Of a stretch of 64,000 bases of DNA, positions 1 through 57,554 are shown piece by piece; positions within the stretch are counted from its first letter, which is position 1, and every line of letters starts with the position of its first letter. The stretch covers positions 1 through 64,000 of the forward strand of contig CAMQYZ010000002.1 in the NCBI GenBank assembly GCA_947039505.1, in the 5' to 3' direction. The stretch is from an uncultured Mycoplasma sp. Its GTDB lineage: Bacteria > Bacillota_I > Bacilli_A > Mycoplasmatales > Metamycoplasmataceae. The notes beneath the pieces were generated by a model. The model saw nothing but the letters and a program-made list of their open reading frames with translations, searched no databases and had not been told where the DNA came from. A program made the translations under genes and the position numbers.

Positions 1-911
1 ATCAAATGAATGGACCAAGACCAATGAATCCAAATCAAATGAATGGACCAAGACCAATGAATCCAAATCAAATGAATGGACCAAGACCAATGAATCCAAA
101 TCAAATGAATGGACCAAGACCGGCTGACCACCAACAATTAACAGGTATGGTTAATTTGAATACTGGTGAATTTGTTCCAAATGTACAACCACAAATGAAT
201 GTACCAAGACAAATGAATTTGTCTCAAAGAACTACAGGATTATTTAACTTGAATACTGGTGAATTTGTTCCAAATGTACAAATTCAACAACCAATGAACA
301 TACCTCAAATGAATATACCTCAAATGAACATACCTCAAATGAATATACCTCAAATGAACATACCTCAAATGAATATACCTCAAATGAACATACCTCAGCA
401 AAGAGTTATAAACCCTAACCAAATGAATACTGGAATGATTAATATGAATACTGGTGAATTCGTTCCAAATGTACAAATTCAACAACCAATGAATACTGGA
501 CCTATTAATATTAATTCGACTCCACAAATAAATGAACAAAGTTCAATTATAGTTCCTCAACACATTAACCCTAATCAAATGAATACTGGAATGATTAATA
601 TGAATAGTAATCAACAAATAGATTCTCCAAAACCAATTATAGTTTCTCAACAAACAGATTCTGAATTAATGGCTACTAGTTTAATTTCAATGCAAACTAA
701 AAATAATCCTTTTTTTGATCCAACAATGAATACTTTTGAATTTGATTTTACAAATAATCAAGATGATTTGTCATCTGATTATTTTGGAAAAATAGAAATT
801 GATTTAAAATTAGAAGAATTGCAAAAAATTTATAACAGTAATTTAATTACTAGTGAAGAATATATAATCAAAAAAAGAGATTTAATTAAAAAAGCATTAG
901 ATAAATTATAG
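1..911 (+). CDS. Repeat-rich Asn/Pro/Met protein with SHOCT-like C-terminus (5' end outside window)
   Basis: The reading frame is already open at base 1 inside a repeat, so the true start lies upstream. The visible 303 residues have four parts: an 11-residue repeat (MNGPRPMNPNQ); three copies of a TGEFVPNVQ motif; seven MNIPQ units; and a less repetitive Asn/Gln-rich stretch. There is no membrane segment. The last about 35 residues (LEELQKIYNSNLITSEEY, then a Lys-rich helix) match the SHOCT pattern, a short C-terminal two-helix domain with the core L-x-x-L-x-x-G/S-x-I-T-x-E-E-F/Y. The gene lies 41 bases before dnaJ on the same strand and may be cotranscribed with it. I do not recognise the full protein. 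Low-complexity N-terminus plus SHOCT tail suggests an oligomerising or scaffold role, which is inference. Confidence 0.75.
   Translation, partial: QMNGPRPMNPNQMNGPRPMNPNQMNGPRPMNPNQMNGPRPADHQQLTGMVNLNTGEFVPNVQPQMNVPRQMNLSQRTTGLFNLNTGEFVPNVQIQQPMNIPQMNIPQMNIPQMNIPQMNIPQMNIPQMNIPQQRVINPNQMNTGMINMNTGEFVPNVQIQQPMNTGPININSTPQINEQSSIIVPQHINPNQMNTGMINMNSNQQIDSPKPIIVSQQTDSELMATSLISMQTKNNPFFDPTMNTFEFDFTNNQDDLSSDYFGKIEIDLKLEELQKIYNSNLITSEEYIIKKRDLIKKALDKL
6..122 (+). repeat. 33-bp in-frame tandem repeat
   Basis: Three full copies (6-38, 39-71, 72-104) and a partial fourth (105-122) of a 33-bp unit encode MNGPRPMNPNQ. The array continues past the left edge of the window. The copies are identical at the DNA level, which favours slippage or recombination and length variation between strains. 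Confidence 0.9.
294..398 (+). repeat. 15-bp in-frame tandem repeat (MNIPQ x7)
   Basis: Seven consecutive 15-bp units encode MNIPQ. Units alternate between AAC and AAT for Asn, so the DNA has a higher-order 30-bp period, which points to expansion by duplication of a two-unit block. The unit length is a multiple of three, so copy-number changes keep the frame. Confidence 0.9.
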
Positions 912-6471: not shown

Positions 6472-7989
6472 TTAATATAAATTTTTAAGAATGTTAAAAT
6501 AATAATTATAATTTTCCAAAGCTATATCTCGCTTTTCGTGAGTAAAGAATAAATATATTTTGATTTTAGGTTCTGTTCCTGAAGGTCTTAAAGAAATTCA
6601 AGACCCATCTAAAAATTCATAAGTTAACATATCATTAGCTTGAATTGAGCCTATGCCATTATTGTAATTGAGGAATTTAGAATTTTGAATGTTTAATTTT
6701 TCAAAAGATGTTTTAATTTTTTTCAAATCATTGTCTGACTTAATATTCAAAACTATTGTTCCGCTTTCTACATATCCATATTTGTTATATATATCATCCA
6801 AAGTTTGTATTAAATTAAGTCCTTTGGTTTTATAATAACTTGCCATTTTTGTCAAAATAACTATTGATTGTATAGCGTCTTTATCACGACAAATATTGGC
6901 ATCAATAAGAGAACCATAACTTTCTTCAAAAGCGTAAAGTAACTTTTGTTTAGGATTTTCATTAGATAAGTGTTGAATTAAATTTCCTATTCATTTAAAG
7001 CCGGTTTCAGTCATATAATGTTTTAAGCCGTTTTCTTCAGCCATTTTTTTAGGCAAAGTAGAAGAAACAAAAGAATAAACTAAATAATATTTATCTAAAT
7101 TTTCTCCTTTTAACTGATCTATCAAATAATTAAATATTAAAATCCCTGTTTCATTACCAGATAATATTTGATATTCATTATTGTGTTTAACTGCCAAACC
7201 CACTCTGTCTGCATCAGGATCTGTCACCAAAGCGATATCACAATTATTATTTTCAGCTATTTTCAATACATTATCAAATGATTCTTTAGCTTCTGGATTT
7301 GGATTTGCAGAAAATGTAAACTCAGTATCCTCTTGCATTTCATTCATTTCATAAAAAGCATTAACATTAAGTTCAGAAAATAATCTTTTAACCGGTTTAG
7401 CGCCTGTCCCGTGTTGAGGAGTGTAAGCAATATATATATTAGATAAATCTCTTATTTCTCCACCAATTTTTTTTACAAATTCAAGATATTCATCCATTAA
7501 AGTATTTGTTATTAAATGAAAATATGTTTTATTTAAATCAATTTTAACATTTATAGATTCACTATAAGGGTTGAAATATGTTATTAATTTTTTGATATCC
7601 TGAGGAAGTAATTGACAACCTTGATCATCATACAATTTAACACCATTGTATTCTTTTGGATTATGACTAGCAGTTATATTTACCGCCCCAATTGCTGATA
7701 ATTGTCTTGTAGCAAAAGAAATGAATGGAGTAGGAGCTATTTCTTCATTGTAATGAACATTTATTCCATATTGAGATAAGACTGCAGCGGTAATTTCTGC
7801 AAAGTTTTTGCTTTGTCTTCTATTATCTCTCCCTATAACCACACCTTGTGTTTTTGCATTTTCAAAATTATCAATAAGATATTTAGCAAATCCCTCAATT
7901 ACTCTAACTATATGAAATTCATTTAGTTTGTCTTCACCTTTCCCTAAAATTCCTCTTATACCAGCTGTTCCAAACTCTAATTTTTTCAT
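6472..7989 (-). CDS. manB: Phosphoglucomutase/phosphomannomutase
   Basis: Interconverts hexose 1- and 6-phosphates; beside a Leloir operon the likely job is glucose-1-P to glucose-6-P. The 505-residue protein has all alpha-D-phosphohexomutase signatures: GTAGIRG near the N-terminus, the phosphoserine loop TASHNPKEYNGVK, metal site DPDADRVGLA, sugar loop GNETGI, and the C-terminal phosphate loop RPSGTEPKIKIY. The last is reached only by reading UGA as Trp (6598-6600). It is divergent from the RpiR-type regulator and shares its operator region. AAGGA precedes the start. Confidence 0.95.
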
Positions 7990-8085: not shown

Positions 8086-8902
8086 GAATGCAAGTGATAA
8101 AATTACCTCAATATTAATGAACAATGAACATATCTTAACTGATATAGATAAAAGAATCCTTAAACATATTTTAAAAGTACAAATCAAGGGTGATATATTT
8201 TTGTTAAAAATAGAAGATATTGCATTAGAAATGAATGTCAGTAATTCAAAAATAACTAAGACATTACAAAAGTGTGGTTTTTCTGGATACAAAGATTTTA
8301 GATATGCAATTTCACAAAATGATAAGCAAATAAATGATGAAAATTTAATTCATAAATATTTAAAAGATACATTAATATATTCTATAAATAAAAGTTTTGA
8401 AAATATATCGAATTATGATTTTGCTTTTTTTAATAAGTTGATTGATAGCTCTAATGATATTTATTTTTTGTCTGGAGGTTTAAATCATCATATTAGTTCC
8501 ATATTCGCTGCCAAATATAATAAAATTGGTAAGCGTTCAAAAGCAATAGAAATATCCAATCCAGAATGTAATAATATCAATGAAAACTCTTTAGTTATCG
8601 TCGTTTCTTTGTCTGGTAAAAATTATAAAATTAAAAATAGAATTAAGTATATCCGAGAAAATATTCCTAATGTTAAAATTGTCTCCATTACTATTGCCAA
8701 TAAAACAAATGTTTTTGAATATTCTGATAAAGAATATTCTTTAACTTTTATAGATTATGAAAACTTGAATGAAAGAGAATTGCCTAGACACTCATTTTCA
8801 ATTATATCCACATTTTTAAACATGTTTTTTTTAGAATATTACAAAAGTAAAAGTGAAAAATTTGATAATATAATCAAAACTAATGCAGATAAAATTACTT
8901 AA
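8084..8902 (+). CDS. MurR/RpiR-family transcriptional regulator
   Basis: Sugar-phosphate-responsive DNA-binding regulator of 272 residues. The N-terminal HTH_6 domain (about residues 1-75) has the helix-turn-helix EDIALEMNVSNSKITKTLQ followed by GFSGYKDFRYAI, a family hallmark. A SIS domain follows (about 110-240), with the sugar-phosphate loop YFLSGGLNHHISS and VVVSLSGKNYKIKN. An in-frame TTG at 8078 is an alternative start. It is divergent from manB and convergent with galTM, overlapping that gene's end by 8 bases. Inference: it controls the galactoside island and itself through the repeat at 8052-8085. Confidence 0.88.
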   Translation: MNASDKITSILMNNEHILTDIDKRILKHILKVQIKGDIFLLKIEDIALEMNVSNSKITKTLQKCGFSGYKDFRYAISQNDKQINDENLIHKYLKDTLIYSINKSFENISNYDFAFFNKLIDSSNDIYFLSGGLNHHISSIFAAKYNKIGKRSKAIEISNPECNNINENSLVIVVSLSGKNYKIKNRIKYIRENIPNVKIVSITIANKTNVFEYSDKEYSLTFIDYENLNERELPRHSFSIISTFLNMFFLEYYKSKSEKFDNIIKTNADKIT

Positions 8903-11294
8903 TTTCAAACTTATATGTAGCACTTTGAATATATGGTTTATTCTCATTAATAGTTATATTTTTAAAATTAGGATTATTTATAGATGTCGGTATTTCTTGG
9001 TACTCTAAGCATAATCCTTGTTGTGTATCTTGATTAGTATTTAATAAAGGATTGGTCGATTTTCAATTGTGTGTATACATTACTATATTTTTTAATGTAG
9101 AATCAGCAATCAAAGTGTTTTTAAAATCAGGAGATGATAAAGTAATTTTTGAATTTTTATCAAGTTCTATCGGGTGATCTATACCATCATTAACCAATGT
9201 TGTTTGTTGAATATCAAGTTTATCTTTTATGTCAACAACCTTAAGAAAATCATTAATAATAAGTTTTTCTTGTTTTATAGGATTAAAATTATTATTTAAT
9301 TTTCAATAACTTTTTGAATTTAAATTAATATTTAAATCTAATATACTTTTACTATTAGGAATTTTTCAATAAAAATGATGTGTAGGATTGCAGATGGTTG
9401 TCTTATTTGTTTTAATAATATAATCAAAACTAATTGAATTTTCATTATGTCAAACTGTTAGTTTTATTTCTATATCAAAATGACAATCTAATTCCATATT
9501 ATACTGACTAGCAATACCTGAAATAACATCAAAATTTTCAAAAGACTTGATAGAAATATCAAATATAATATCGGATCATTTTTCATTCATGCCATGAATA
9601 TAATTATTTCTTTCATCTGTATTCAAAAAAATTTCTTGATCATTTAATTTAATCAAACCCTTTTCAATTCTACCTGCTACAGGACCAACAAAAGAATTTA
9701 AAAAAATATCATTATTTATAAAATATGAATTCACGTCTTGATATTCTAATAGAAAAGGATTATTATGCAATTTTATTTGTTTGATTGTAAAACCCTTATT
9801 GATAATTTCAACATTAAGTCCCACATTATTTTTAATGGTAAATATTTCTTCATTATATTTGATTTTATTTTGAATAAATTCAGTAAAGTTTTCATCATTT
9901 AAAACTTTACAATCCTCTAGACAACTTAAAAAAATATCAGACATATCTTTTAATAAATTTTCTTTATTTATCTTTATTTTATTTTTAACTAATTTTTTAA
10001 TTCACAAATAATGTTTAGAAATTTTTTCATTATTCAAAATAACATCTAAATTTTTTTCATCAAAAACGTTTATTATTTCTTCTAATTCAGAAACTAATCG
10101 TTTTGGAAGAATAGCTAATCCTCCCGCTTCCATTAAGCCAATGTTTTCTTGTTTTATATGAAATTTGGTAGGATTAATATGAAAATTACCAAGAGGTTTT
10201 TCCTCGCTTGTTGAATTGTTTCTAAATATCAAATATACATTAAAAACTTCGCCAATCTTATTGGCTATTATTGTTGTAGAATTATTAATAGATTTTAATC
10301 CATAATCAGAATTGCTTTTTCATTCATTAATAAAAAAATTAACAACACTTATAATTTCATCTGAATTACTAGAAGATATTTTTATTGCATTTAAAGGTCA
10401 ATTTAAAATATCAATATTTGCCTCTTTAAATTTAAATGATTTCAATATTTTTGCATTCATGATAGGCAGAGTATCTTCGCCTCCTTGATAATGATTGTGA
10501 CCTAACAAAGATCCTCCAACAATAGGTAAATCTGCATTACTACCTAAGAAAAAATTATTGTTTTCGCTAATAAATGTAATTAAATTTCTAATTGTATTAT
10601 TGTCAATAATCATGGGGGTATGTTGAATATTATTCAAAACAAAATGCTTATTAATGTAAGCATATGGAGAATATTGAAAAAACCATTCATTTTTGTTTTC
10701 TTTATTCAAAGTGATAAAAATCGCTCTTAAATTTTCCCTTGAATCTTTAATCAAACTTCCTTTGAAACCAATATTTTCAACACAAATAGGACATTTTGGT
10801 TCATCTTTATTTTCAGAAACAAAATTCTTTTCATTAATTATTTGAGCTTGCGTTTTTTCTGGTTTAGCATTATTGATAGAGATTTTTATTTCTCCATAAT
10901 TAGTATCATGATTTCACATAGAATTTAATCTGTTTTTATCTGTTTTTATGTAATAAGAAATAATAGAAAGCATTAAAAGTTTTTCATATTTATCCGCATT
11001 GACAAATGTTGTATTTATTTTCAATTGTTTAGGAATTAAATACCCTAAAGTTTCATTTATTTTATTTTCAACCAACGAATCATAATTTTTACTTTTAAAA
11101 TACTCTCTTAGCTCTTCTATATATATTAAGTGTTGATCAATTTTAAATTCCATATTATCAATAAGATTTAACTCACTTATGCTTTCTTCTTGATTGTCCA
11201 ATAATATTTTATTAATAATTTCTTGTGCATTTTTTTTATCAACTAATTTTGCAAATAAAAATCCTTGAATAATGTTACTTAATATTTTTTGCAA
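8895..11294 (-). CDS. galT: Fused galactose-1-P uridylyltransferase / galactose mutarotase (GalT-GalM)
   Basis: One open frame of 799 residues with no TAA/TAG between two Leloir domains. Residues 1 to about 460 are Firmicutes-type GalT: CPIC zinc motif, GGSLLGHNHYQGG with the catalytic His region, IKQENIGLMEAGGLAILP, and the usual C-terminal helix ending near NDENFTEFIQNK. Residues about 465-799 are aldose 1-epimerase: FVGPVAGRI, NYIHG, NPTHHFYW and a C-terminal beta-sandwich ending EFEIK-like. The only Met between them (9944) lies inside the GalT C-terminal helix and has no ribosome binding site. GalT uses UDP-glucose and galactose-1-P; GalM converts beta- to alpha-galactose. The start is TTG 11294, inside the end of galK; the next ATG is about 45 codons in. 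Confidence 0.88.
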
Positions 11295-13416: not shown

Positions 13417-16554
<3,138 letters not shown>

Positions 16555-23314: not shown

Positions 23315-26300
23315 TTATAATAAAAATATACTAATTAATGAAATTGTTGGAATTACTATTTCACTACTTAAAGTAATGTCTTGAGTTCCGCCATAGTAAT
23401 CTATTTTTATATCTAAAGAATAAGAAACTTTATAATTTCCGTCTGTTTGTTTGGTTACTGTAATTTTTTTATTATTTTGATTTTGTCCAATAACAATATT
23501 TTGGAATAATGCATTTTCAAATAAACCATTGTTGTCAACAAGTAACATTTCTAATAGTGATGTGTTATTTGATAATAAATTGAATGTGAATCCTTCATTA
23601 CTTAAATTTTGCAATAAAGTTAAAGAATTATTTATGTCACCATTTCCTACACCAATTCAATTATTAGAATAAATATTTGAATTTGATTTTAATACTTCTC
23701 TACCAAAAGAAGTAACAAAATTTTGCAATGGTATGTCAACGCTTTCATCATTTGCTAACCCTTCAATTAATGCCTTGTTAGTTACAGAGTTTAAATCTTC
23801 TATTACTGTATTTTCAAAAGTTCCAGGTTTAGAAATTAAGACTTTATTATTTGTTTGATTTAATTTATCAGCAGTAAACAATTTATCTATAGTTTTAAAG
23901 TTTTTGATTGATATACGTATTGAGCTAGTAATATCAGGTGAAACTTCAAGAGATAAATGACCACCTATAGTTCCGGCTTGATCATTAAAGGTTAAAGTTG
24001 GTCCCATAATAAATTGGATTGCTTGTCCTGGAAAATAATGATCCATTATCCTTGGAGTAAAAGTAATATAATCTTTTCAAACATCTGGATTTTTACTTGC
24101 TTGCAATAATACTGTAGAAGCATAAGTTGCTATATTTTCATTATCTTTTATAGTAAATTCTTCTGCCAAAATATTAAGAGCGGCTTGTTTGATGTTTAAG
24201 TTAACTTTATAATCTATTAGTGAATTAGTAATTGGAGTAGCTTCTGTTCATTGAGTTCCATTGAATTCCTTTTGAGCAAACATTATTTTTATATTTCAAT
24301 TAGTATTTGTAAAATTGATATTGCTGAATTCCATACTTGAAATAAAACCATTATTATAGAATTTATTTATATCCAAGTAAGTTAAAAAATTACTATATTG
24401 ATATCTAACTAATAGCGGCGTTGTATTGTATCTAAAAAAATCTTCTATGGTGATACTTTGAGTAGTTTCATCTTTTAAATCATTAATAAAGTTTTTTTCA
24501 TTTAACAATATCTCTGGATTCAAAATATCTAATTCCAAATTTGATTGGAAAACTGGAAAGTTAGAAATAGTTATTTTTTCATTATTAATTTCATGACCTT
24601 GATATTGACCATTTAACAATAAAATTAATTTTCCTGTTACTTGTGATGAGCCTTGAACAATAGATAATTTTAAATCACTATAGAAGTGATTAGCAACTAA
24701 TCTTTGATTTAATTCTTCATTAGTTAATGTAGATATATTTGTGTATTGGTCCAAGTTTAATTGTCTAGCAACTGCAACATATTTATCAACTTCTAATTTG
24801 ACATTAGGACTAAGAGCATCATCAGGAGAATTTGCTGTATAACTAATTTGTCCACCTTGTACAAATTCTGCCAAAACAGGAGGGATTGGGTCAACTGGTG
24901 GAATTATGTTGACAATTATTTCACTACTTAAAGTAATGTCTTGAGTTCCGCCATAGTAATCTATTTTTATATCTAAAGAATAAGAAACTTTATAATTTCC
25001 GTCTGTTTGTTTGGTTACTGTAATTTTTTTATTATTTTGATTTTGTCCAATAACAATATTTTGGAATAATGCATTTTCAAATAAACCATTGTTGTCAACA
25101 AGTAACATTTCTAATAGTGATGTGTTATTTGATAATAAATTGAATGTGAATCCTTCATTACTTAAATTTTGCAATAAAGTTAAAGAATTATTTATGTCAC
25201 CATTTCCTACACCAATTCAATTATTAGAATAAATATTTGAATTTGATTTTAATACTTCTCTACCAAAAGAAGTAACAAAATTTTGCAATGGTATGTCAAC
25301 GCTTTCATCATTTGCTAACCCTTCAATTAATGCCTTGTTAGTTACAGAGTTTAAATCTTCTATTACTGTATTTTCAAAAGTTCCAGGTTTAGAAATTAAG
25401 ACTTTATTATTTGTTTGATTTAATTTATCAGCAGTAAACAATTTATCTATAGTTTTAAAGTTTTTGATTGATATACGTATTGAGCTAGTAATATCAGGTG
25501 AAACTTCAAGAGATAAATGACCACCTATAGTTCCGGCTTGATCATTAAAGGTTAAAGTTGGTCCCATAATAAATTGGATTGCTTGTCCTGGAAAATAATG
25601 ATCCATTATCCTTGGAGTAAAAGTAATATAATCTTTTCAAACATCTGGATTTTTACTTGCTTGCAATAATACTGTAGAAGCATAAGTTGCTATATTTTCA
25701 TTATCTTTTATAGTAAATTCTTCTGCCAAAATATTAAGAGCGGCTTGTTTGATGTTTAAGTTAACTTTATAATCTATTAGTGAATTAGTAATTGGAGTAG
25801 CTTCTGTTCATTGAGTTCCATTGAATTCCTTTTGAGCAAACATTATTTTTATATTTCAATTAGTATTTGTAAAATTGATATTGCTGAATTCCATACTTGA
25901 AATAAAACCATTATTATAGAATTTATTTATATCCAAGTAAGTTAAAAAATTACTATATTGATATCTAACTAATAGCGGCGTTGTATTGTATCTAAAAAAA
26001 TCTTCTATGGTGATACTTTGAGTAGTTTCATCTTTTAAATCATTAATAAAGTTTTTTTCATTTAACAATATCTCTGGATTCAAAATATCTAATTCCAAAT
26101 TTGATTGGAAAACTGGAAAGTTAGAAATAGTTATTTTTTCATTATTAATTTCATGACCTTGATATTGACCATTTAACAATAAAATTAATTTTCCTGTTAC
26201 TTGTGATGAGCCTTGAACAATAGATAATTTTAAATCACTATAGAAGTGATTAGCAACTAATCTTTGATTTAATTCTTCATTAGTTAATGTAGATATATTT

Positions 26301-26590
26301 GTGTATTGGTCCAAGTTTAATTGTCTAGCAACTGCAACATATTTATCAACTTCTAATTTGACATTAGGACTAAGAACATCATCAGGAGAATTTGCTGTAT
26401 AGCTAATTTGTCCACCTTGTGCAAATTCTGCCAAAACAGGAGGGATTGGGTCAACAGGAGGAATTGGGTCAACAGGAGGTTTAGTCATGTTATCATTTTG
26501 TGCACAAGAAATCAAAATAAGAGGAGAGCTAACCACCCCTATAGCCAAACTGCCAATGATTAAGTTAGATAATTTTATAGATTTTTTCAT
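23315..26590 (-). CDS. Surface lipoprotein with two tandem 520-residue repeats
   Basis: A single open frame of 1,091 residues, UGA read as Trp. The signal peptide MKKSIKLSNLIIG...LILISC has a lipobox with Cys29, then a Pro-rich linker (PPVDPIPPVDPIPPV). The rest is two copies of a 520-residue unit (about residues 44-558 and 564-1078) joined by another PPVDPIPPV segment. The protein ends abruptly with a 14-residue hydrophobic tail (IVIPTISLISIFLL) after the second copy. No known domain is recognised. An AAGGAA site and an extended -10 promoter lie upstream. It is anchored outside the membrane and is probably an antigen; function unknown. Confidence 0.88.
23357..24901 (-). repeat. Downstream copy of 1,560-bp tandem duplication
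   Basis: Matches 24917-26461 at a spacing of exactly 1,560 bases (520 codons). Reading line by line I found only five differences, all within the last 90 bases (24816, 24842, 24861, 24896, 24899); the rest looks identical. The duplication therefore appears recent or kept uniform by gene conversion. Confidence 0.93.
24917..26461 (-). repeat. Upstream copy of 1,560-bp tandem duplication
   Basis: Copy nearest the start of the lipoprotein gene. Two of its five differences from the downstream copy change Ala/Val residues (AEFAQ versus AEFVQ; DDVLSP versus DDALSP). Recombination between copies would delete or add exactly 520 codons in frame. Confidence 0.93.
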
Positions 26591-26659: not shown

Positions 26660-26668
26660 ATTATAGCA
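26660..26668 (-). promoter_or_regulatory. Extended -10 promoter of the lipoprotein gene
   Basis: TGCTATAAT on the minus strand (TGn plus TATAAT), about 70 bases before the lipoprotein ATG at 26590. Confidence 0.65.
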
Positions 26669-43003: not shown

Positions 43004-43339
43004 TTAAGATGGTTGCCCGATTTTTGGAGAAGGAACAACATGAATGTGTGTGTGAAAAACGACTTGTTTAGATGTTGCTTCATTATTCACCATAATTCTA
43101 AATCCGTCTACTTGTTGCTTTTTCATTTCTTTTAAAGCTAATTTTCTAGCTATAAAAAAACAGTATTTTAAATCTTTATCTTTAATTGTAATCAAATTAC
43201 GAGAAAAAGATTTAGGGACAACTAAAAAATGACCTTTTTCTATCGGTTTAATATCATAAAAGGCAATTACTCTTTTATTTTCAAAAATAATATCTGCCGG
43301 TATTTCTTTGTTGATTATTTGTAAAAACAAAGTTTCCAT
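43004..43339 (-). CDS. hinT: HIT-family protein (HinT)
   Basis: 111-residue histidine-triad hydrolase acting on purine nucleoside phosphoramidates and similar AMP conjugates. HTHIHVVP is the histidine triad; FYDIKPIEKGHFLVVPK is the family core. The start overlaps the P60 stop (TAATG). In M. hominis the HinT protein binds the P80/P60 membrane complex encoded by the same locus, matching the order here. Confidence 0.94.
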   Translation of the reverse strand: METLFLQIINKEIPADIIFENKRVIAFYDIKPIEKGHFLVVPKSFSRNLITIKDKDLKYCFFIARKLALKEMKKQQVDGFRIMVNNEATSKQVVFHTHIHVVPSPKIGQPS

Positions 43340-45270
43340 TATTTTACCACATTAATTTTAGTTCTAGGAGTAGCGTAATCTGGTTTTTTTGATAAATAAA
43401 TAATTCCTAATTCTTCTAAAATAACATTAACTTCTTTAATATTTCCTGGATGTATTGCCACATCATTCAATACCAAAAATGCCTTAATTACATTTATCAA
43501 TTCTGCATCATTCATATACAATGAGAAAGCCAACATTCTTTGGTTGTTTTTATTTGTTGGTTCTGAAGATCAAGGTGTTCCATTCATTGAAAATGTTCCA
43601 ACGGCCTTTTCTTTGCCATCAATTTCTCTAACTTCTTTAATTCCATCAATAGTTTTTCATGTAAATGAAGGCAATAATCTAATGTAGTAAGAAACATTAA
43701 CTTTTCCCTCTACAATAGGATCAATACCATATATTTGTTGACTTTCAAAAGAATTATTTGGATCTAGATCATTAAAGAACATTGTGCTAGGTAATTCCGA
43801 AATTATTTCAGAAGCATCAGGATTATTAGTTTGAGTTCAACTAATAATAACATTATAAGGATAATCTACAAAACCATTGGTTGCATCAGTGTTGCTATAT
43901 GTCATTGATAATTCAATTGACTGTTGAGAACTTGAATCATTTAAAATAGGAGTAATACTTAAAACTTTTCAACTATTTTTTGATCCTACTGGCGAATAAG
44001 ATCCATCAGGAGTTAATTCACTATTATCAATTACCAAATCAACCAAATTTATTTGTTTAGAATTTTTACGAACAACATCAGTAGTGTTACGTATCGAAAT
44101 AGCAGGCAAGAAAGCTTCTGCATTTAAAAGATCAATTTTTGCTCTCTTTTCTAAAGTGTCAAAAGAAACAAATTTATTTTTAGCATTCAATAAACCTGAT
44201 GCATTAGCACCAAATCTTCTAACAATATCAGGATCAGTACTTAAATCACCCTCACCAGATTCAGTAGATAATTCTATAGTAGAATTGTAGCCATAAAAAT
44301 CTAAAGCTGATTCATCAAATTTCATATCACCAGACTTAATTAATAAATCCTTTGAAAAGATTTTCTTCGGAGAAGATGAAGTACCCACTTGTTCTCCAGA
44401 TCACAAGTTAAAATAATCTTGAACATTTTTAATTTTGGTATTAGTTAAATTAGCTATTTTATCAGGTTTTTCTGAGTTATAGTTTCATTTTATTTTAGGT
44501 CCTTTTTCTACTAAGTATTTTTCTAAAAAATATGTAGGACTGTTTATATCAAAACTAGTTGCTTGTCAATATTCAATTGCATTGATATCTCCATCCATAA
44601 TGTCATTATAATCAGTTCCTCTTTGAATCATATCTGATGTTGTAGCAGTGAAATAAAATTCAGCAATCGCCATATTCAATAATTCTGTTTGAATTCCTGT
44701 TTGAATAATTTGATACAACAAATTAAAATCAGCTTTAAATTGTGTTGCTTCTGTAGAAGAAGAAGAATAAGCAAATTTTGGATTAAAATTTAATTCAATT
44801 GTTTGTTCATTAAGAGATAATTGATTTTCAACTCAAGCTTGTTTTTTCTCTCTAAAATAATTAATATTTGTTGATGTTTTTCATGCTGTGTAAAAAGTAT
44901 ATGCACTAAATAGTTGAGCATTAATTTCGGCAGAAATGGCAGCACCATTTAAACCATTAATGACAATGTCGTTGGTAATTGGAGTTAAGTTTAAAAGATA
45001 TTTTTTAATGATTTCTTTGTTTGTTTCAAAACTATCAGAAGTAACATCTTCATCAGGAGATTTTGATTTTAAATAAAGTTCAGCAAAGGCATCTCTTGCT
45101 CAATAATTAGAATATATTTCTTTTGCAGCAGGTGAAGTTAAACCCTCTAATTGGTTAGCTAAATTTTCATCAATTTGTGGAACGGTTGAACATGATGTTA
45201 AAACAGCAGTAGTTAAAACTGGTAATGTTAATACAGATGGAATCAATAGCATTTTTTTAAATATAGACAT
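43339..45270 (-). CDS. P60-like membrane lipoprotein
   Basis: 643 residues with a lipoprotein signal peptide ending VLTSC (Cys27), so lipid-anchored on the outer face. No enzyme motif. The position between a P80-like protein and HinT, with TAATG overlaps on both sides, matches the M. hominis p80-p60-hinT locus, and this is the basis for the name. About a dozen UGA codons are read as Trp. Homology to P60 is inferred mainly from context. Confidence 0.78.
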
Positions 45271-47705
45271 TATTGGCCACCCGATTTTCTACTTGAAGGT
45301 AATATTCCTGGTTTTGCTTTAGCTTGTACAGAAATAATTTCACGTAGTTTATCATCAAATTCTGATTCAATCAACAAGTATCCATCAAGAGCAGCATTTT
45401 TATATCCAGAATTATTCATAAAACTCAAAGTAATTGGACCAGAGTTTTTTGGATTTTCAAAAAAATCATAACTATTCATCGGTTTAATCATTTCTTCAAT
45501 AAAAGTAGACAAGTCTGTCATTGCACTTTTAACATCAGGATTTATAGTGTTATTAATAGTACTAATTAAATTTTTATAAACATCATCAACAATTTTGGTT
45601 GCATCAATTTCACTTACTGTATCTGATTTTAAAGTATCAACTACATATTTTTTGTTTTCCTCTATCAAAATTTTATTAATAATTTCAGGAGTTGTTATCT
45701 TATTGTATTGTGCAGCTACATCATACAAAATAACTTGATCAGGATTTTCTGCCACATCTATTGTATTTTGAATGTCACTTTGCAACATTTTTAAAGATGG
45801 CTGATCAGCAGGCGCTGCTGTTGTATTTGTTAAATTTTCAATATTATAAACTGTTAATCCCTTTGCATCAACATATAAAAATGTATCTTCTCCAATTTTA
45901 TAAACAGTTCATTTTTTAGGTACTTCATTCACAGGACTAGTAGGTTTATCTGTAAAACCTGCATATGGATCTAAATCTTCAAAAGATGAGTTTAAAAGGT
46001 CATTAAATGTATTGGTAAAATCTTGTGAATTAATAGCATTTATCTTATCCTTTAAATTTTTATTAAATTTAAATAAATCAAAATTAGGTTTGAACTTAAA
46101 AATAATGGTTTCTCCACCAGCTGTAGGATCAGTCGCTTTTTCAGGTAATAATTCTTCAGTTAAAAATTTGGTTAAGTTTGTAATATTTTTTGATACTCCC
46201 GCCGCTATAGCAGGATCCATAAATAAAATTTTATCTAAAAATATATCTATTGGATTAGCATTTTTAACTTTAAATAATCCCTGTTCAGGAGTTGGAGTTA
46301 GCATCGCAGAAATTGCTGCAACATGAAATGATCTTAATTCATTTTCTTCACTTTTAATTAATGTTGCTAATGAAGTCACTTTTGATGATCCCAATTGTGA
46401 ACCTGTAGTTGCCGCCAATTTTGTAGATGGTTCTGGTTCTGGTTCTGGGTCTGGAGCAGCTGTTAAGATAGTATTTAAAATAGTTTTGTCTTTGTCTTGT
46501 CTATTTGATGAAGTATTTGCTCCTAGAAAACCAGAAATGGTATTAAAAGGTATAACTTGCTCCCCTGAATTAGTTCTAGAAACTGTAAATAAATTAGTAA
46601 GCATAGCGGGAGTTATAGTCAATTCTAATTCTGTATTTTCAGCATTTTGAATCAAAGGAATTGAAACACTACTAATATTAGCAGACTTAAAATATTCATT
46701 GTATAAATTAGGTAAACGATTTAGTGGATTTCTTTCATGTAAAACATATGACTTAGTTTGATATACAGCTATTTTTACTTCTGAAGATGGGGTAATAGGA
46801 TTTCTTTGTGATGGAATGGCAATGTTGTCTCCATTTGCATTTAAGAAATTTTTACCTCCAACTAAATCAGGCGAAAACAAACGAGTTCCTGCTGGAATGC
46901 TTTGTTCAACTCCGGCATCATCTTTATAAGTAATATTTTGCTTAGCTTGCAAACTTAAATCTGCTTGTGTTCAAGATGTTATATTAATTTCAGCTGTATT
47001 AAATCTTGCAAAGGCAGCATCTTTCAATTTATTTTTAGTTAAAAAATCAATTGCTTCTTGATCAGTTTCTGAACCACCATATTTTTCAGATTTTAATTCT
47101 TGACTTCATTTCAAAGGTCAATCCAAAGGATAAGATTCTCTCATGGCTTTTTTAGCTTTATTCAATTCTTTTTCTTGTGATTTTCTAACATCATCAAAAG
47201 ATTGAGAAACATCAACACCAAATGATGTTGCTCCAACACTTTCGTTTGTATCTTTATACTTTGTATTATTAACAAAAGCTTCAAATTTTAGAAAAGCTTC
47301 TCTTTCTTCTTTATAAAGTTTTTCAACAATGATATTTTCAATTTTTTCTGCATTTTTATTAATTTTATCTTTGTCTTTATTAATTCCAATAATGTCATCA
47401 ATAGTTGGTCCACCCTCAAAAACTGGTAAATCACCATCATATGGTTTATCGCTTATATACTGCACGCCAGCAACACCTATAGGAACTCCAATACCTATAG
47501 ACAAAAGAGAAACTATTGCTGCACCAAAAATCCATTTTACTCTTTTATCTTTGGGATTTACATCTACATTTCCATATGAAATTGTAGATGTAGTATTAAC
47601 ACCAGATATTTTTTTTGAAAGTGATTTTTTAGGTGCTCTTGGGGCTTTAGGGGCTTTAGGAGGTTTTTGTTTTTTTGGTTTTTTTGGTTTTTGGATTTCT
47701 TCCAT
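45270..47705 (-). CDS. P80-like membrane protein
   Basis: 811 residues. The N-terminus is a cytoplasmic Lys/Pro/Ala-rich stretch (KKPKKQKPPKAPKAPRAPKK), followed by one membrane helix (about residues 57-83, FGAAIVSLLSIGIGVPIGVAG) and a large extracytoplasmic domain with an ESYPLDW segment and an Ala/Pro/Glu-rich patch (PDPEPEPEP). It heads the operon P80-P60-HinT-Cof. The basic tail could be the contact for cytoplasmic HinT (inference). It has an AGAGG site and extended -10 promoter. Confidence 0.78.
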
Positions 47706-49429: not shown

Positions 49430-52400
49430 TTACTCTCCCTTCAGTAACATAATTGGTTTAATTCTATTTAAATTTAATCATGATATCAATGATGTAGCTG
49501 AAAATATGAGAGCAACTATCAGTGATGAGAACAACACATCGGTTGCTCCTAGCGATATAGACAGTGAAATTAATACTGTTGAATTAACGACACTACTAAA
49601 CATTGTTATCAACCCTATAGTCAGTGGTATTGATAGAATAATAGATAATAAAATAATTGGAATATAAAGTGAGAAAAAGAGTTTCATTTTTTCAATATTA
49701 CTATAACCTAAAATTGAGAATATGGCAACATTTCTTTCGTTTTCACTAATAATCAAAGTAGAAATCATAATTAAAATTGTTACTGATATTAATAACGATA
49801 ATACAATAACCATTGTGTTAACTGAATTAATTGCATTTGTTGTATTGGAAATAAATCCTGATTCAATATTTTTAGATTGAATATCTTTAAAACTTGGTCC
49901 TACAACATTATTGCTATTATATATTTCAGAAAATTTCTCTAATGCATTATTCACAATAGTTTCCATTCCTGGGTTAATCATGTCAGGTAAAGAAACACTA
50001 TTGTTTCCTAATAAAAATATTTCAATTAAAGATGATTCTTCAGAGTGTGAGAAATTAGGGTTAATAATTCTTAATGTTTTTGCAAATACAGAGTTATTAA
50101 CAATACTTGTACCACTTCCTTGAATTTTATAAAATAATTCTTTAAATATATTGGTGTTTTTTTCTTGTTGCTCACTAGATAAATTAGTTGATATTAAATC
50201 AATTTTATTGTTGGCTGATCAATAACCATTTTCAGAATACAATCCTAGAGATTCAGTGGCCTGTACAGGATTTTCATCGGTTGATAAAATTCCATTAAAT
50301 GGTATTTCATTATCAATAGATAATTGTGGGTCATCTAGATAGGTAATGGCATTAATCACTTTTTGAGTAGTGGTTCATTCTTCATTAATAAAGGTTTCAT
50401 TAATACCAATAACTTCAGCTGTTCAAGTTGTTTTTTTTGGTGAACCTATATTGAGTGTTTTTTTGATATTTTCAGTAAATCTGTTGGTTGTATTGATAAC
50501 AGTTAATTCTAATTGTGAACCTATATTTAAATTTCTTTTATCTTTAACAACATGATTAATAATAATAGGGATTACTTCTTTAGAATTATCTCATCTATTA
50601 TTGGCAATTTCTAACAAATTATTTCCGTGATTATCTAATATTTGGACTTGTTTTGAATTTGGATCAAAACCATTAATTGTCGGCATATGACTTTGATCAT
50701 TTTGATTTACAGTAGTTGCATATGAAAATTTTTCATTAGTTGTTTCATCAAACATTACACTACCAAAAGTTAAGAAGAAATCTTTTACAAATTCAGGTGC
50801 ATTTTCATTTTCTGGACTAGTACTATCATAATTTAGTGATTTGTCATACGCACTTACTAAAAACTCTCTATATTTTTCTCTAATTCCTGATCGAGCAAGG
50901 GGTTGATGTAATTGATTCCCAGTAATCACAATATCTTCATAATAATATTCTCCCGTTGTATCATTAATATTTCTATAAACAAATTTTGAATCTTCAGGTT
51001 TTTCTAAATTAATTAAATATTTAAAGTAAGGAGCTTTATTAATCAAGTCATCTGCTAATTTATATTCATCACTTTGACCATAATTAGTTAATCCTTGGGT
51101 TCACTCTAATCATTTAGCAGCATATTGCGATGTTTCCACAACACTTACTCTTTGTGAGTCAGGCATAGAGTTAAACAATGAATCTCAAACATTAGTTTCT
51201 ACACCTCCACTATTAAAAAATAAATCAAATGAGGACTTGGTAATAATATGTTTATCGTGAATAGAGGGGGTTCCATTAGGGTTGAAGCCATCAGCATAAA
51301 CGGGATTAATAACATCATTGGGTCCAGGAGCAAAATAATTTGATAAATAAGTTGATCCTTCGTTTGGATTCCCTATAGGTACATACAACAAATTTCCCAC
51401 ACTTTGTTTGTCAAAAGTTGTAATTGCACCACCTTCTAGTGTCGGAGTAATTAATTCTATTTTAAAATCATATTTTCTATTTTTATATGTTTTATTTACT
51501 GCATTACCAAATGCATTTTGTGATGCTAGAGAAAAACTCATAATAGTAACCGTTAATAACAATGATACTAACAATGATATTAATTTTCAAATAGAATTTA
51601 AAGATAATGATAACGTAAATTTAGATTTAATATTTTTTGAATGAAATTTTCCCTTAATAACTTCTGCTGTTTTTGAATTATTTAATTGGAATGAACCATC
51701 CATTAATTTAACCGGTTTTACTTTTAATAAAAATAGTGTCGTAATTATTGTTAATAAAACCAAACCAATTAAAGGTACTAGCACAGTAATAATTAAGGAC
51801 AAAACGTTGAATGCACTAGGACCTATGGGGAGCGTTCAATATATAGAAAAAATATTCATAACAGGGATTTGTAAGAAATATCCAACAATATAACCTAAGG
51901 TTGCTCCAAAGAAAGCGACAATCAAAGCAAAGAGACAAATGGATGCAGCTATTTGAATTGATCTATATCCTTGTGCTTTTAAAATACCCAATACCTTAGA
52001 TCTAGATGATACATATCTTTTTATTACAAAAATAGTGATAATACCAATTAAGAATATTAAAATACTTGAAATCAATAAATTAATGTTGTTAATTGTTGAT
52101 ATCAAAGTTTCAATTGTTTGCACTCTCAATGATATTTCTGGTTTTAATGGATTAGTTTCGTTGTATAAATAGGCTTTTTTAAATAAAGCGTTGTTTTTTT
52201 CTTCTGTTGTTAAATTGTTATAATTATTTAAACCAGTAGTACTAACATAAATATATTCGTTTATTTTATTTTGTAAAATTGTTGGTGTAGTATCGTTTGG
52301 AGCAACAACTAAAAAATATTTATTAATAACTGCATTGGCATTTGATTCTTTAACTCTATCAAATCCTGATTGATTAACATAAACTAAAGCTTGAGTTTCT

Positions 52401-55400
52401 GTATTAACTTGAATATTATTTAAATCTGTAACTGGATATAAATAATCGACTGTTGCATCTTCTCCAATAATTAAAAATTCTAATCCATTAACATTAATTT
52501 TATATTTATCTAGTGTATTTTCTATTAAGTTTTGCATTTCTAAAGAATCTTTAGGAGCGTTCTCTAAGGTCATTGGATAAATTTCTTTTTTGTTATTTTT
52601 CAAGTATGCTGAACTTACTTTTGCTAAGTAAGAACCAACATCAGATATAACTATTTTATAATCATCTGTAGTCACTTCTGTAAAAGAATCGACAGCAGCT
52701 AAAAGAGCATCCGATAAATTTACACCAAAAATATCAGGATTAATTGCTAACATTTCTGATAAATATTCTAAATAATCTAAATCTAAAGATAAAGTTATTG
52801 GACTATTCTCATAAATTGGTTCATCAATATAAACGCCTTCACCTATAAAAGAATTCACAATACCTTCAAAACCTTCATAATTAATAGCTGGTGCATCTGT
52901 TAAGTTTTCAGAATTAAAGTTATATAGCTTTTCTTTAATAACATAAGCTAAATTTCCCAAACTACTTGTATCTATAGCGTTTTGATTAACTGTAAATCAC
53001 ATCAAAACAGGGGCATTCAATACAGCGCTAAATGGACTCATAATAACACTTGATATTCCTAAATTTTCTAAAACATAATTAAAACCACCAGACAAAGTTT
53101 TTAATGTTCTTTGCCCTAGGGTTAGCATGATTTGAGATTTCTCTTTATCATTTTTAGGTAAAAATAAATTGATAAAATCTTTTGTGACCAAGTCTGCTTT
53201 AGTTGGAGCACTTGAACTTGTTGTACCTTCTATTGAAATGATTGAAGATAACCCAGAAACTAATGAAATAGTATTATTATTAATTTTTAATTTTCCTTGA
53301 ATTTCATCATAATCAAAATAATAATTAATCGCTTCTTTAGTTATTCCATTTGACATTAATTCTCCTGGAGTATATTGAGTAAACTTCATTGCTGTAGCTT
53401 TAACATTTGAAAAACCATCTAAAATTTTAAAATTTAATAATAAATTAGGATTGAATGATTCTGTTGTGGAATTCAAAATTTTACCAATAAAAGAATTTTT
53501 ATTTAAGACATTATTAACTAGATTAATTATTTGAGATGCAACACTATTTGTGGTAGCACCACTTGATTGTAGATTAATTTCTGCAAACTTCATTCAAAAT
53601 GAATAGAAATTTAATATTTCCACAGTCATATCTTTTGCTTGCAAAGGGTTTTTATCATTATAAAATTCATTATAAACTTGTGTAGATATAATATCATAAA
53701 TTGGGTTTTTACTTGCCGGCTTAACGTTTGGATTAATCATATTAATGAATTTATCAGCTAAAGAACTAGGAAGGGTTGGGTTAGCAATATTACCACCCAA
53801 AGCACCACCCGTTGTAGGTGATGCCATATTGGGATCAAAATTAACAAATTCTGTTTGTTGCATAAACTCTAAATAAACATCTACTCTTTTTTTGATGTCA
53901 TAATTAGCAATGCTAATATCTCCTGCAAAATTAAAAATATAATTTGTTAAATATTTTCCCATAGTTGATTCTGGATCTACAAAATAATTGGGATCATTAA
54001 GGGAAATCGATAATTCTTTTAAAGATGTTTCTAAATCTTGTAGTTCTGGTGTCGGCGATTTTAAAAGTGATTGCAAGTCTCTAATGTCCAGTTTGTTGGG
54101 ATCGGATTCTGGTTGATAAACACCAACTACACCACCTACTAATTCTGTTTTAGAAGATATGTTTAATAATTCAATCATTGCATTATGTAAGGCATCATCA
54201 TTATCATTATTGTGTCCCAAAGAATTTAACAAAGAAGCGGCCATTCCAGAAACTGAAATAGAATTAATAATATATTTTTGTGTTTGTTGTTCATGATCTA
54301 CATAATAAGTTCGAATGACTGAGTTATTTTTAATATTTGTTGCCATGGCATCAAGATTAATTAAATCAATAATTTTGTTTAGTCCAATATTCATATTTAC
54401 AAAATCATTATTAGGATCTGGATTAACAGCTCCCAAATTACCATTTAATTGATCAAGAATAGGTCCAAATAAAGCTGCAGAATCTGCATCCAAAACATTA
54501 TCTTTTAAATATTTAATAATTTTTGAAAAATTCAACTGTGTAATTATTTGTTTTAACCCCGCCTTAAATCCTACATTAGGATTGCTAGGATTATCTACAA
54601 AAATATTATTTAGCAAAATAGGTAAAATGTCTCCTGTACCAATTGTTTCTATAACATTATTAGTATTTGGTGAATTATCATAAAAATTCATTCATATTTG
54701 GCTAATTGTAGCATCTATATCGATTGACGCAATAATTTTACGCAATCCTATCAACATTTCTCTAGGATCATTTACATAATTTAAGAGCGATGCAATATCA
54801 AATTCATTACCAAACATTGCTTGAAAAATTTTATTAATATTTTCAATTTGTTTGTTTATATACAGTGGATCTGGGTTAGATATTATAACATTTAATATTT
54901 CATCTAAAAAACTATTTCAATACAATTCTTCATTATATTTAGCTCCCTCATAAAAGATTCCAAATATTATTTTTTGTAATTTTCTAGATTGAATTTGAGA
55001 AGGAAATGTTAATACATCAGCAAATCCATTCTTAGACATTGATGTTGTTGCAGCTTCTAAAATGATTTTTAAGTTTTTAGGTGAAATTAATGGTTCTAAA
55101 ATACTGGTTAATGAATTAATAAGGTTATCTCTAAAAACATTAAAATTATTTGATTCTTGTCAATTATTAATAATGTCAGAACCAGGAATTACAAGTTTAA
55201 ACGGGATAGAGTATTTATTTTCATAATTAGGATTTTGTTTAGCTCAACCATTGGGTCCAACTATCACCCTAGGTTCTCCTGTAGATTTTGTGGTCGCAAA
55301 ATTTAAATCTTTATCTTCAATAAATTTGGCCATTGACTCAGAACTACCATCAAATTCACTATTACTCATATTTTTAGAAAATCAAGTTTTTTTACCGCCC

Positions 55401-57517
55401 ATATTTTTTTCTTCTAAAATATAATATCTACCTACATCATCATTCATAGTAGGGGCTTGCTTTGTTATTCCATAAATTTGGCCATTAGCATTTTGCATTC
55501 TAATTATTTTGGCATTTGACATTTTTATTCACTTGCTAGAGTCAATTTGTTCTTTAACAAAAGGAATATATGAATAATTTTCAAAAGTAATAATAGGATC
55601 AATATAATTTTTATCAACCGACATTCCACTAAAAATTAAATCAGTAATTTTGAAAATATATGATTCAGGAACTTTTGTTGACATTATGTCATCTTTTGAG
55701 CTAAGTTCAAATAACAAAGACTTTTCTTTGCTTTCGTTATAAAGTTTACCAACATTTTGTTCAACCAAAATATTGTTATTTAATTTAATTTCTTGATTTT
55801 CATTACCACCATTTATAAAATGAAATGTGTGAGCAATATTATCTAAAAATCCTGAAACAGTGATGTTTTCTCTAAGTCCGATATTGTCAATATCTCCCAC
55901 AAGTCTTAATATTTCATTATATAAATTTTGCTGTGCAATAGCTTTGGCACCATCATCTATTTGTTTAATTCTATTGTTTTTAGAATTAGCATCATTAAGT
56001 ATTTTTTGTATTTTAATTGATGTATCTCCATTTAAGTCTTTTAAAACAAGATTAACATCTTCATTTGATATGAATTTAGATTCTCTTTCTATTCATAAAA
56101 TTGAACCTGTATTCAAAGTATTGTTTGAAGGTGCTCTTGGTCCATTTATTTTGGCACCATTTTTAGGTTTTAATTTTCTATTCAAATCTTTTGATGTAAT
56201 GGATTCAGAAAGACGTATTGTTTCTTTTGGATCAATAACTGTAATACCATCTTGTTCAACAATTTCAATAATTTGTGTCTTTTTTCAATAAGATGTTTGT
56301 GAGTAATATTCTTGTTCTTTCTTTGTCAAACTTAACATATAATCTTTATAGTTTTTGGTTCATAATTTGTTGTTTTCTGCTTGACTATTTAAAAAATCAT
56401 AATTAATTTTACTGTGGTATCTTACATATTCATAACTTGTTCTTTCTTTCACAATTCAAGCTTTAGGTATAACAAAATTACTTTGAATAACAAAGAATAA
56501 TTTACTATTTGGTTGAACTATGTCATTTATAATTGTATTATTATAATTAATTGAAAAACCACCCGGTTTAATGGTTTTATTTAAGGATTGTGAAAGCCTT
56601 CATTTTTTATTATTTGTAGGAGCAACAATATCAAACAATCCTTGTTGTCCTAATGATTTATTAACAGAATAAATAGATCCACGACTTTCACCGGGACTTT
56701 TAGTAAAACCAAGTAATTTAGCAACTTGATCAGGGGTAATAGTAATTAATTTTCCTTGTTTTTCTCATGATTGCTTTAATGATTGTGAAATTGTTGCCTC
56801 GTGAGAATCTGCATTGATATATATGCTTTTAACATTAGTAATTCTATCATCTGTAGATGAAAAAAAGCCATCAACACCTGGAACAACCATTACCAAATCT
56901 CCCAATGTAATATTTGAATCTCCTGATTTGAAAACTGTTATCTTATCAGTCGAATTTAATCTATAATTAACATCTACACTTATTCCAGGTAATTCATATT
57001 CTTTGAGTGGTGTTGGTGGAAAACGTCTTGATTCTACAACTCCCGTTTCAGAATTAACAAAATTTGAAATATTATTTACTTGTAAAAAACGATATAAATC
57101 TTTTACTTTTAAGTAATTATTGTTAGTTTCTGATCCTACAAAATTTAGTTTTGAAATTTGAATATAACCCTCTTTTGTTAAGGGGTTAATAACAACATCT
57201 GATTGTGGAAATCTAATGGTGTTTTGTGTATTAATTGTTGCTTCATCCGATACATATTCGGTTCTTTCTGGAATTAAGCCATCAGGAATATATGTTTTTG
57301 AAGGTTTTTCTCCTGTGGCTTCAATTTCTGTATCTACTGTTAAATCATGAATTTTTGAAACTTTTTTATAATCATCAAATTGAGAAGTGTAATTTGCTTT
57401 AACATCACTCAAAAGAGTGAATACACCAGAAGAAAGGAAGATTAAAACTGTCAATCCTAAAATTAAACTTTTTGTTTTAGAGAATGATTTTCAAATTTCT
57501 TTGAACAATTTTTTCAT
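49430..57517 (-). CDS. Giant FtsX/MacB-type ABC transporter permease
   Basis: One open frame of 2,695 residues with UGA as Trp. I read the least obvious segments (54.7-55.5 and 55.9-56.8 kb) and found no TAA/TAG. N-terminal membrane helix at about 17-37 (SLILGLTVLIFLSSGVFTLL), then about 1,750 extracytoplasmic residues. Next come FtsX domain 1 (about 1795-1975; ISSILIFLIGIITIFVIKR, KVLGILKAQGY), a second external domain (about 2010-2550), and FtsX domain 2 (about 2555-2690; NVAIFSILGYSNIEKMK). The layout is MacB/LolE-like but several times larger. AAGGAA precedes the ATG. Confidence 0.88.
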
Positions 57518-57554
57518 TTTTTTCCTTCTGTAAAATCAAATATAATACAAAGCA

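What the first reader, a model, noticed from the sequence alone, without database searches (positions are those of the whole stretch)
23315..26590. Recent exact 520-codon tandem duplication inside a surface lipoprotein gene
Two copies at a spacing of 1,560 bases differ at only five positions, all in the 90 bases nearest the 5' end. The unit is a whole number of codons, and the Pro-rich PPVDPIPPV segment precedes each copy and may have served as the recombination site. Homologous recombination would switch between 1, 2 or more copies, giving size variation of a surface antigen.
Basis: partly seen in the sequence, partly recalled or inferred. Interest (0 to 1): 0.6.

Follow-up and report, generated by a model that had tools for sequence, protein, structure and literature searches.

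The report
Old duplicated lipoprotein kept identical
A mycoplasma surface-lipoprotein gene contains the same 504-amino-acid block twice, and because a related species carries the same arrangement with a different but again self-identical block, the duplication is probably old and its two halves keep being copied onto each other, rather than being a fresh duplication.

Summary
The minus-strand gene 23315-26590 (genetic code 4, 1,091 aa, lipobox ILISC) carries two 504-aa units at a 1,560-bp period. They share a 1,459-bp exact run, with five differences, all within 90 bp of the unit's 5' end. The longest chance repeat in simulated 64-kb sequence is 17-20 bp.

The word "recent" is not supported. 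A sister species (G004, an uncultured Mycoplasma MAG) has the same two-unit gene at the same rnj-glpO locus. Its copies are identical over 1,550 bp, yet the units differ between species by 207 of 1,512 bases (80% aa; dS 0.35, like the neighbouring rnj). Both genes share the inter-unit junction [IV]IVNxIPPV, which matches neither species' own 3' tail nor first linker. Two outgroups hold one unit at this locus.

Best explanation: one duplication before the G000/G004 split, then within-genome homogenisation (concerted evolution) by RecA-type gene conversion or unequal crossing-over. Copy-number switching and antigen size variation are plausible but not shown. Caveat: G004 is a MAG and G000's origin is unknown; short-read assembly could under-count copies and hide isolated interior differences, but not the 14% expected without homogenisation. 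Closest analogue: the M. hominis Lmp repeats.

The parts
23315..26590 (-). Whole gene: two-unit surface lipoprotein, 1,091 aa, genetic code 4 (8 TGA = Trp)
   Evidence: ORF; 8 TGA read through
26660..26665 (-). TATAAT, candidate -10 element, about 70 nt upstream of the ATG (weak evidence, sequence only; this position is not in the consensus scan's list)
   Evidence: read; one search found promoter-like sites near the chance rate
26504..26590 (-). Signal peptide and lipobox MKKSIKLSN...SPLILISC
   Evidence: same N-terminal pattern in the paralogues
26429..26503 (-). Linker 1, proline-rich (PPVDPI repeated, 18-bp units at 26435-26479)
24917..26428 (-). Unit 1 (504 aa, EFAQGG...LSSEI)
24869..24916 (-). 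Inter-unit junction and linker 2 (IVNIIPPVDPIPPVLA); its left part is shared with G004 (IVNPIPPV)
23357..24868 (-). Unit 2 (504 aa, EFVQGG...LSSEI), 99.6% aa identical to unit 1
23315..23356 (-). C-terminal tail of unit 2 (VIPTISLISIFLL, stop), outside the homogenised repeat and diverged from G004's tail (IIMANTIN)
23357..24815 (-). 1,459-bp exact block, copy in unit 2; partner block 24917-26375 in unit 1
24816..24899 (-). Cluster holding all five differences between the copies (24816, 24842, 24861, 24896, 24899): probable edge of a homogenised tract

Best explanation
The gene encodes a surface lipoprotein with two tandem copies of a 504-aa, genus-restricted ectodomain on proline-rich linkers. 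Shown: the two-unit anatomy, the same anatomy at the same locus in a sister species, near-perfect identity within each genome against about 14% DNA divergence between them, and single units in two outgroups at that locus. Inferred: the duplication happened once, in the ancestor of G000 and G004 after the G009/G011 lineages branched off, and the copies have since been homogenised separately in each lineage by RecA-dependent recombination (gene conversion, or unequal crossing-over 2 to 3 to 2). The tract last homogenised in G000 covered the 3' 1,459 bp and stopped about 90 bp short of the unit's 5' edge. Further inferred, not shown: copy number may vary within populations, and retention of two or more units despite a deletion-prone 1.5-kb direct repeat suggests selection for the longer, bivalent surface protein.
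For: Two-unit syntenic orthologue in G004 with a 1,550-bp exact repeat at period 1,572. Within-species dS 0.003 and 0; between-species unit dS 0.35, rnj 0.37, glpO 0.53. Copies group by species (94/94) and G000+G004 units form one clade (100/100); 207 differences and a longest shared run of 59 bp between species, against 1,459 and 1,550 bp within. Shared junction IIVNIIPPV / VIVNPIPPV (20/27 nt), found in neither tail nor first linker. Single unit in G009 and single truncated unit in G011 between glpO and rnj. Five differences confined to a terminal 90 bp. RecA and RuvB present.
Against: Only two genomes carry the two-unit form, so one shared ancestral event rests on the junction (27 nt) and synteny. 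G004 is a metagenome-assembled genome and G000's sequencing method is unknown; assemblers can merge near-identical copies, so interior identity and the count of two are not certain. The species-grouping branch has 94/94 support, not 95 or more. No reads, isolates or expression data were available.
Confidence: 0.78

Rival explanations
1. Two recent, independent tandem duplications: each species duplicated its own single unit not long ago, using the proline-rich linker and the unit's 3' end, so the copies are still identical.
For: Copies are 99.8% and 100% identical at DNA level, which a fresh duplication predicts without invoking conversion. Outgroups are single-unit.
Against: Needs the same rare event at the same boundaries twice. 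The junction sequence IVN-x-IPPV is shared between species but is not a clean join of either species' present tail and first linker. Copy-2 tails would have had to change in both lineages after duplications too young for the units to differ. All five G000 differences lie in a terminal 90 bp, unlike scattered post-duplication mutations.
Confidence: 0.13
2. Partial assembly effect: at least two units are real, but the exact interior identity and the copy number of two come from a short-read assembler that merged similar copies and walked the loop once; the true copies differ at isolated sites or number more than two.
For: G004 is a metagenome assembly. Differences surviving only at the edge next to unique sequence is what graph simplification would leave (own knowledge). 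Short-read genomes under-count identical repeats, e.g. the Yersinia ruckeri Ilm adhesin by 4-5 fold (PMC6868369).
Against: The 14% divergence expected without homogenisation, with no shared run over 59 bp, could not be merged by k-mer methods, so strong homogenisation remains. The unique junction sequence cannot come from false duplication. This modifies rather than replaces the main explanation.
Confidence: 0.3
3. Wholesale misassembly: the gene has a single unit and the second copy is an assembler artefact.
For: Only that no reads could be examined here.
Against: Two assemblies of different species show it. The junction holds sequence found nowhere else in the gene, in frame, and five differences distinguish the G000 copies.
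Confidence: 0.03

Closest known systems
Mycoplasma hominis Lmp (large membrane protein) genes, about 0.5-kb intragenic repeats
   Same: A mycoplasma surface protein with long, near-identical intragenic tandem repeats; in Lmp, insertion or deletion of repeats gives size variation and repeat number correlates with spontaneous agglutination (PMC524362).
   Different: Unit here is 1.56 kb, about three times longer, with only two copies assembled. No copy-number variation has been shown. Homology to Lmp was not tested directly.
Staphylococcus aureus SasG B repeats and Yersinia ruckeri Ilm Ig-like repeats
   Same: Surface adhesins with repeats identical at DNA level; SasG repeat number varies within a population and short-read assemblies under-count Ilm repeats (PMC6868369).
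   Different: Those have 8 or more short units (128 aa; about 300 bp); here there are two units of 504 aa in a cell-wall-less bacterium.
Lipoprotein_17 (PF04200) and Rib domains
   Same: For the modelled central domain (unit residues 204-345), Foldseek's top two PDB matches are Ureaplasma Lipoprotein_17 structures 2krt and 3jvc, and the best aligner matches are Rib domains, Z 4.9, 2.9 A over 81 residues.
   Different: All matches are weak (E 0.05 or more; Z under 5). No Pfam match to Lipoprotein_17 at this locus even at permissive cut-offs, so it is not filed as a member.

Membership tests
Concertedly evolving tandem duplication | Copies within a genome more alike than orthologous copies between species | tested here: met
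   Within: 3/1512 and 0/1512 differences; between: 207/1512; species grouping 94/94
Concertedly evolving tandem duplication | Duplication older than the species split | tested here: inconclusive
   Shared locus and junction favour it, but only two two-unit genomes exist in the data
Concertedly evolving tandem duplication | Recombination machinery present | tested here: met
   RecA 425 bits, RuvB_N 173 bits
Lmp-like size-variable repeat surface antigen | Intragenic, in-frame, near-identical tandem repeats in a surface lipoprotein | tested here: met
   surface location inferred from signal peptide and lipobox only
Lmp-like size-variable repeat surface antigen | Repeat number varies between isolates or clones | not testable with these tools
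   No isolates or reads; both two-unit genomes show two units
Lmp-like size-variable repeat surface antigen | Sequence homology to M. hominis Lmp proteins | not tested
   The unit family was found only in the window's genus: 6 of 135 genomes of its family.
Pfam PF04200 Lipoprotein_17 | Match over the Pfam gathering score | tested here: not met
   No match at this locus at E up to 10 in the genome search, nor in the member scan; a paralogue, C3:72878-73069, scores 13.4 bits against a cut-off of 22.4
Pfam PF04200 Lipoprotein_17 | Lipoprotein_17 fold | tested here: inconclusive
   Top Foldseek hits 2krt and 3jvc at E 0.05-0.18; Z 3.7-4.6
Bacterial lipoprotein | N-terminal signal peptide ending in a lipobox cysteine | tested here: met
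   MKKSIKLSNLIIGSLAIGVVSSPLILISC read directly; conserved pattern in the paralogues

The most novel reading that the evidence does not exclude
The real unit number is above two and varies within populations: an active size-switching surface lipoprotein with 1.5-kb repeat units that has persisted across speciation, with units continually homogenised and the assembled pair being an under-count.
Probability: 0.25. Interest if true: 0.5.

Novelty: new member of a known kind. Interest (0 to 1): 0.35.

Why it matters
It corrects a common inference: a near-identical tandem duplication is not necessarily recent. With a sister species and two single-unit outgroups, this locus is a small natural system for measuring how recombination keeps repeated surface-protein domains identical in a minimal-genome bacterium, and for asking why a deletion-prone 1.5-kb direct repeat is retained. 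The lipoprotein family has no convincing Pfam or NCBIfam match and is confined to one genus in the genomes searched.

Tried and rejected
Pfam and NCBIfam naming of the protein: the DUF6426 hit (29.9 bits for the whole protein, against a cut-off of 25) falls to 16.3 bits for one unit and appears in only 2 of 8 members, so I treat it as spurious. PDB sequence search gave only designed repeat proteins, rejected as compositional. Fold of the whole unit (mean pLDDT 85.7): no convincing match (Foldseek TM about 0.1, VIA Z below 4); cadherin, S-layer and Rib rows suggest only an elongated, beta-rich, multi-domain ectodomain. Internal sub-repeats within the unit: profile comparisons of the thirds were not significant. 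Recombination with single-copy paralogues as the source of identity: longest exact run shared with any paralogue is 14 bp, so homogenisation is between the tandem copies only. Looking up the source metagenome in papers: I searched three run accessions and one project accession that I had guessed; only the guessed project accession matched in the papers shown, so no host is claimed. The AU test of unit1+unit1 across species could not be run because the tool needs two different rows on each side (the two G004 units are identical).

Full report
Observation. The gene at 23315-26590 on the minus strand is a single open frame only under genetic code 4 (table 11 breaks it). It starts MKKSIKLSNLIIGSLAIGVVSSPLILISC, a mycoplasma-type lipoprotein signal. 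It holds two 504-aa units (aa 55-558 and 575-1078), each preceded by a proline-rich linker. At an offset of 1,560 bp the copies share a 1,459-bp exact run, and the rest of the repeat has five mismatches, at 24816, 24842, 24861, 24896 and 24899. Ten order-3 Markov simulations of a 64-kb sequence never gave an exact repeat longer than 20 bp, and the next-longest in the window is 88 bp.

Relatives. The unit family is found only in the window's genus: 6 of 135 genomes of its family match. The window's own genome has two single-unit paralogues elsewhere. Three relatives matter at this locus. G004 (named as an uncultured Mycoplasma MAG, ERR3140027 bin) has a two-unit gene between rnj and glpO, as here. 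Its copies match exactly over 1,550 bp at a period of 1,572. G009 has an intact single unit and G011 a single truncated unit, both between glpO and rnj. In G002 the gene next to rnj is glpF, and in G010 and G007 the neighbour is a peptide-deformylase-like gene, with no lipoprotein gene (names by resemblance to the window's genes). RNase J identity to the window is 99% for G004, 96% for G009, 95% for G011 and 93% for G002, so G000 and G004 are the closest pair.

Age of the duplication. Units differ by 3/1512 within G000 and 0/1512 within G004, but by 207/1512 between the species. Synonymous divergence between species is 0.35 for the unit, 0.37 for rnj and 0.53 for glpO, so the unit diverged at an ordinary rate; within genomes it is 0.003 and 0. 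A tree groups copies by species (94/94) and the four units together (100/100). This leaves two readings: one old duplication homogenised within each lineage, or two recent duplications.

Why one old duplication is favoured. The junction between units reads SSE-IIVNIIPPV in G000 and SSE-VIVNPIPPV in G004 (20 of 27 nt alike). The tails after unit 2 read VIPTISLISIFLL and IIMANTIN and are barely alike (14 of 27 nt), and neither species' first linker contains the IVN stretch. A clean recent duplication would make the junction a simple join of the present tail and linker; it is not. The junction is shared, while the regions outside the repeat have drifted. The five differences in G000 all lie in the terminal 90 bp. 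If mutations fell uniformly this has a probability of about 1e-6 (computed after seeing the pattern), whereas a homogenised tract that stops short of the edge gives it naturally. At two of the three in-unit sites one G000 copy keeps the G004 base.

Mechanism. RecA and RuvB genes are present. Gene conversion and unequal crossing-over through a three-copy intermediate would look the same here. Paralogues elsewhere share no run over 14 bp with the unit, so exchange is confined to the tandem pair. Both genomes show two units, and keeping two across a species split despite a direct repeat that readily deletes hints at selection for the longer form (inference).

Assembly caveat. G004 is a metagenome assembly; how G000 was sequenced is not known to me. 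Short-read assemblers can merge nearly identical copies and traverse a repeat loop once (own knowledge), so the interior identity could hide isolated differences and two could be an under-count, as documented for another adhesin (PMC6868369). They could not merge copies as different as the two species are, since these share no run over 59 bp. The unique in-frame junction argues against a false duplication.

The protein. The AlphaFold2 model of one unit is confident (mean pLDDT 85.7): a beta-rich, multi-domain body without a clear structural relative. A central domain modelled alone (pLDDT 81.7) has Ureaplasma Lipoprotein_17 structures as its top two Foldseek hits at non-significant E-values and Rib domains at Z 4.9. 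The locus itself has no Pfam match to Lipoprotein_17. I read it as a lipid-anchored surface ectodomain of adhesin-like build, doubled in this clade; its ligand is unknown and surface exposure is inferred.

Verdict. "Recent" should be replaced by "probably old and homogenised". It is a new member of a known kind, with an unusually long unit and a useful comparative setting.

Noticed in passing
window 6-911 (+): Low-complexity Asn/Met/Pro/Gln-rich 301-aa ORF with exact 33-bp (1-121) and 30-bp (293-397) in-frame tandem repeats, directly upstream of a DnaJ gene (953-2086); no Pfam match.
   Followed up: partly
window 8895-11294 (-): 799-aa ORF with a galactose-1-phosphate uridylyltransferase N-terminal match and an aldose 1-epimerase match in one frame: an apparent enzyme fusion in a sugar-use cluster with LacZ (13417-16554) and a phosphoglucomutase-family enzyme (6472-7989).
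   Followed up: no
window 49430-57550 (-): 2,706-aa protein with FtsX-like permease domains, very large for a genome of about 0.8 Mb.
   Followed up: no
window 43339-47705 (-): Two adjacent large ORFs without Pfam match: a 643-aa lipoprotein (VLTSCS lipobox) and an 811-aa protein with a Lys/Pro-rich N-terminus and one apparent membrane segment.
   Followed up: no
L002 and L009; L003 and L012: Single-unit paralogues of the same lipoprotein family have N-terminal linkers of variable length built from short Pro-rich repeats (PPVTPDPPII, PNPNPNPD), suggesting that linker length changes quickly in this family.
   Followed up: partly
L011:1324-2676: In G011 the orthologue at the rnj-glpO locus lacks the C-terminal third of the unit (ends ...FKTSKT then stop), a shortened single-unit form.
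   Followed up: partly
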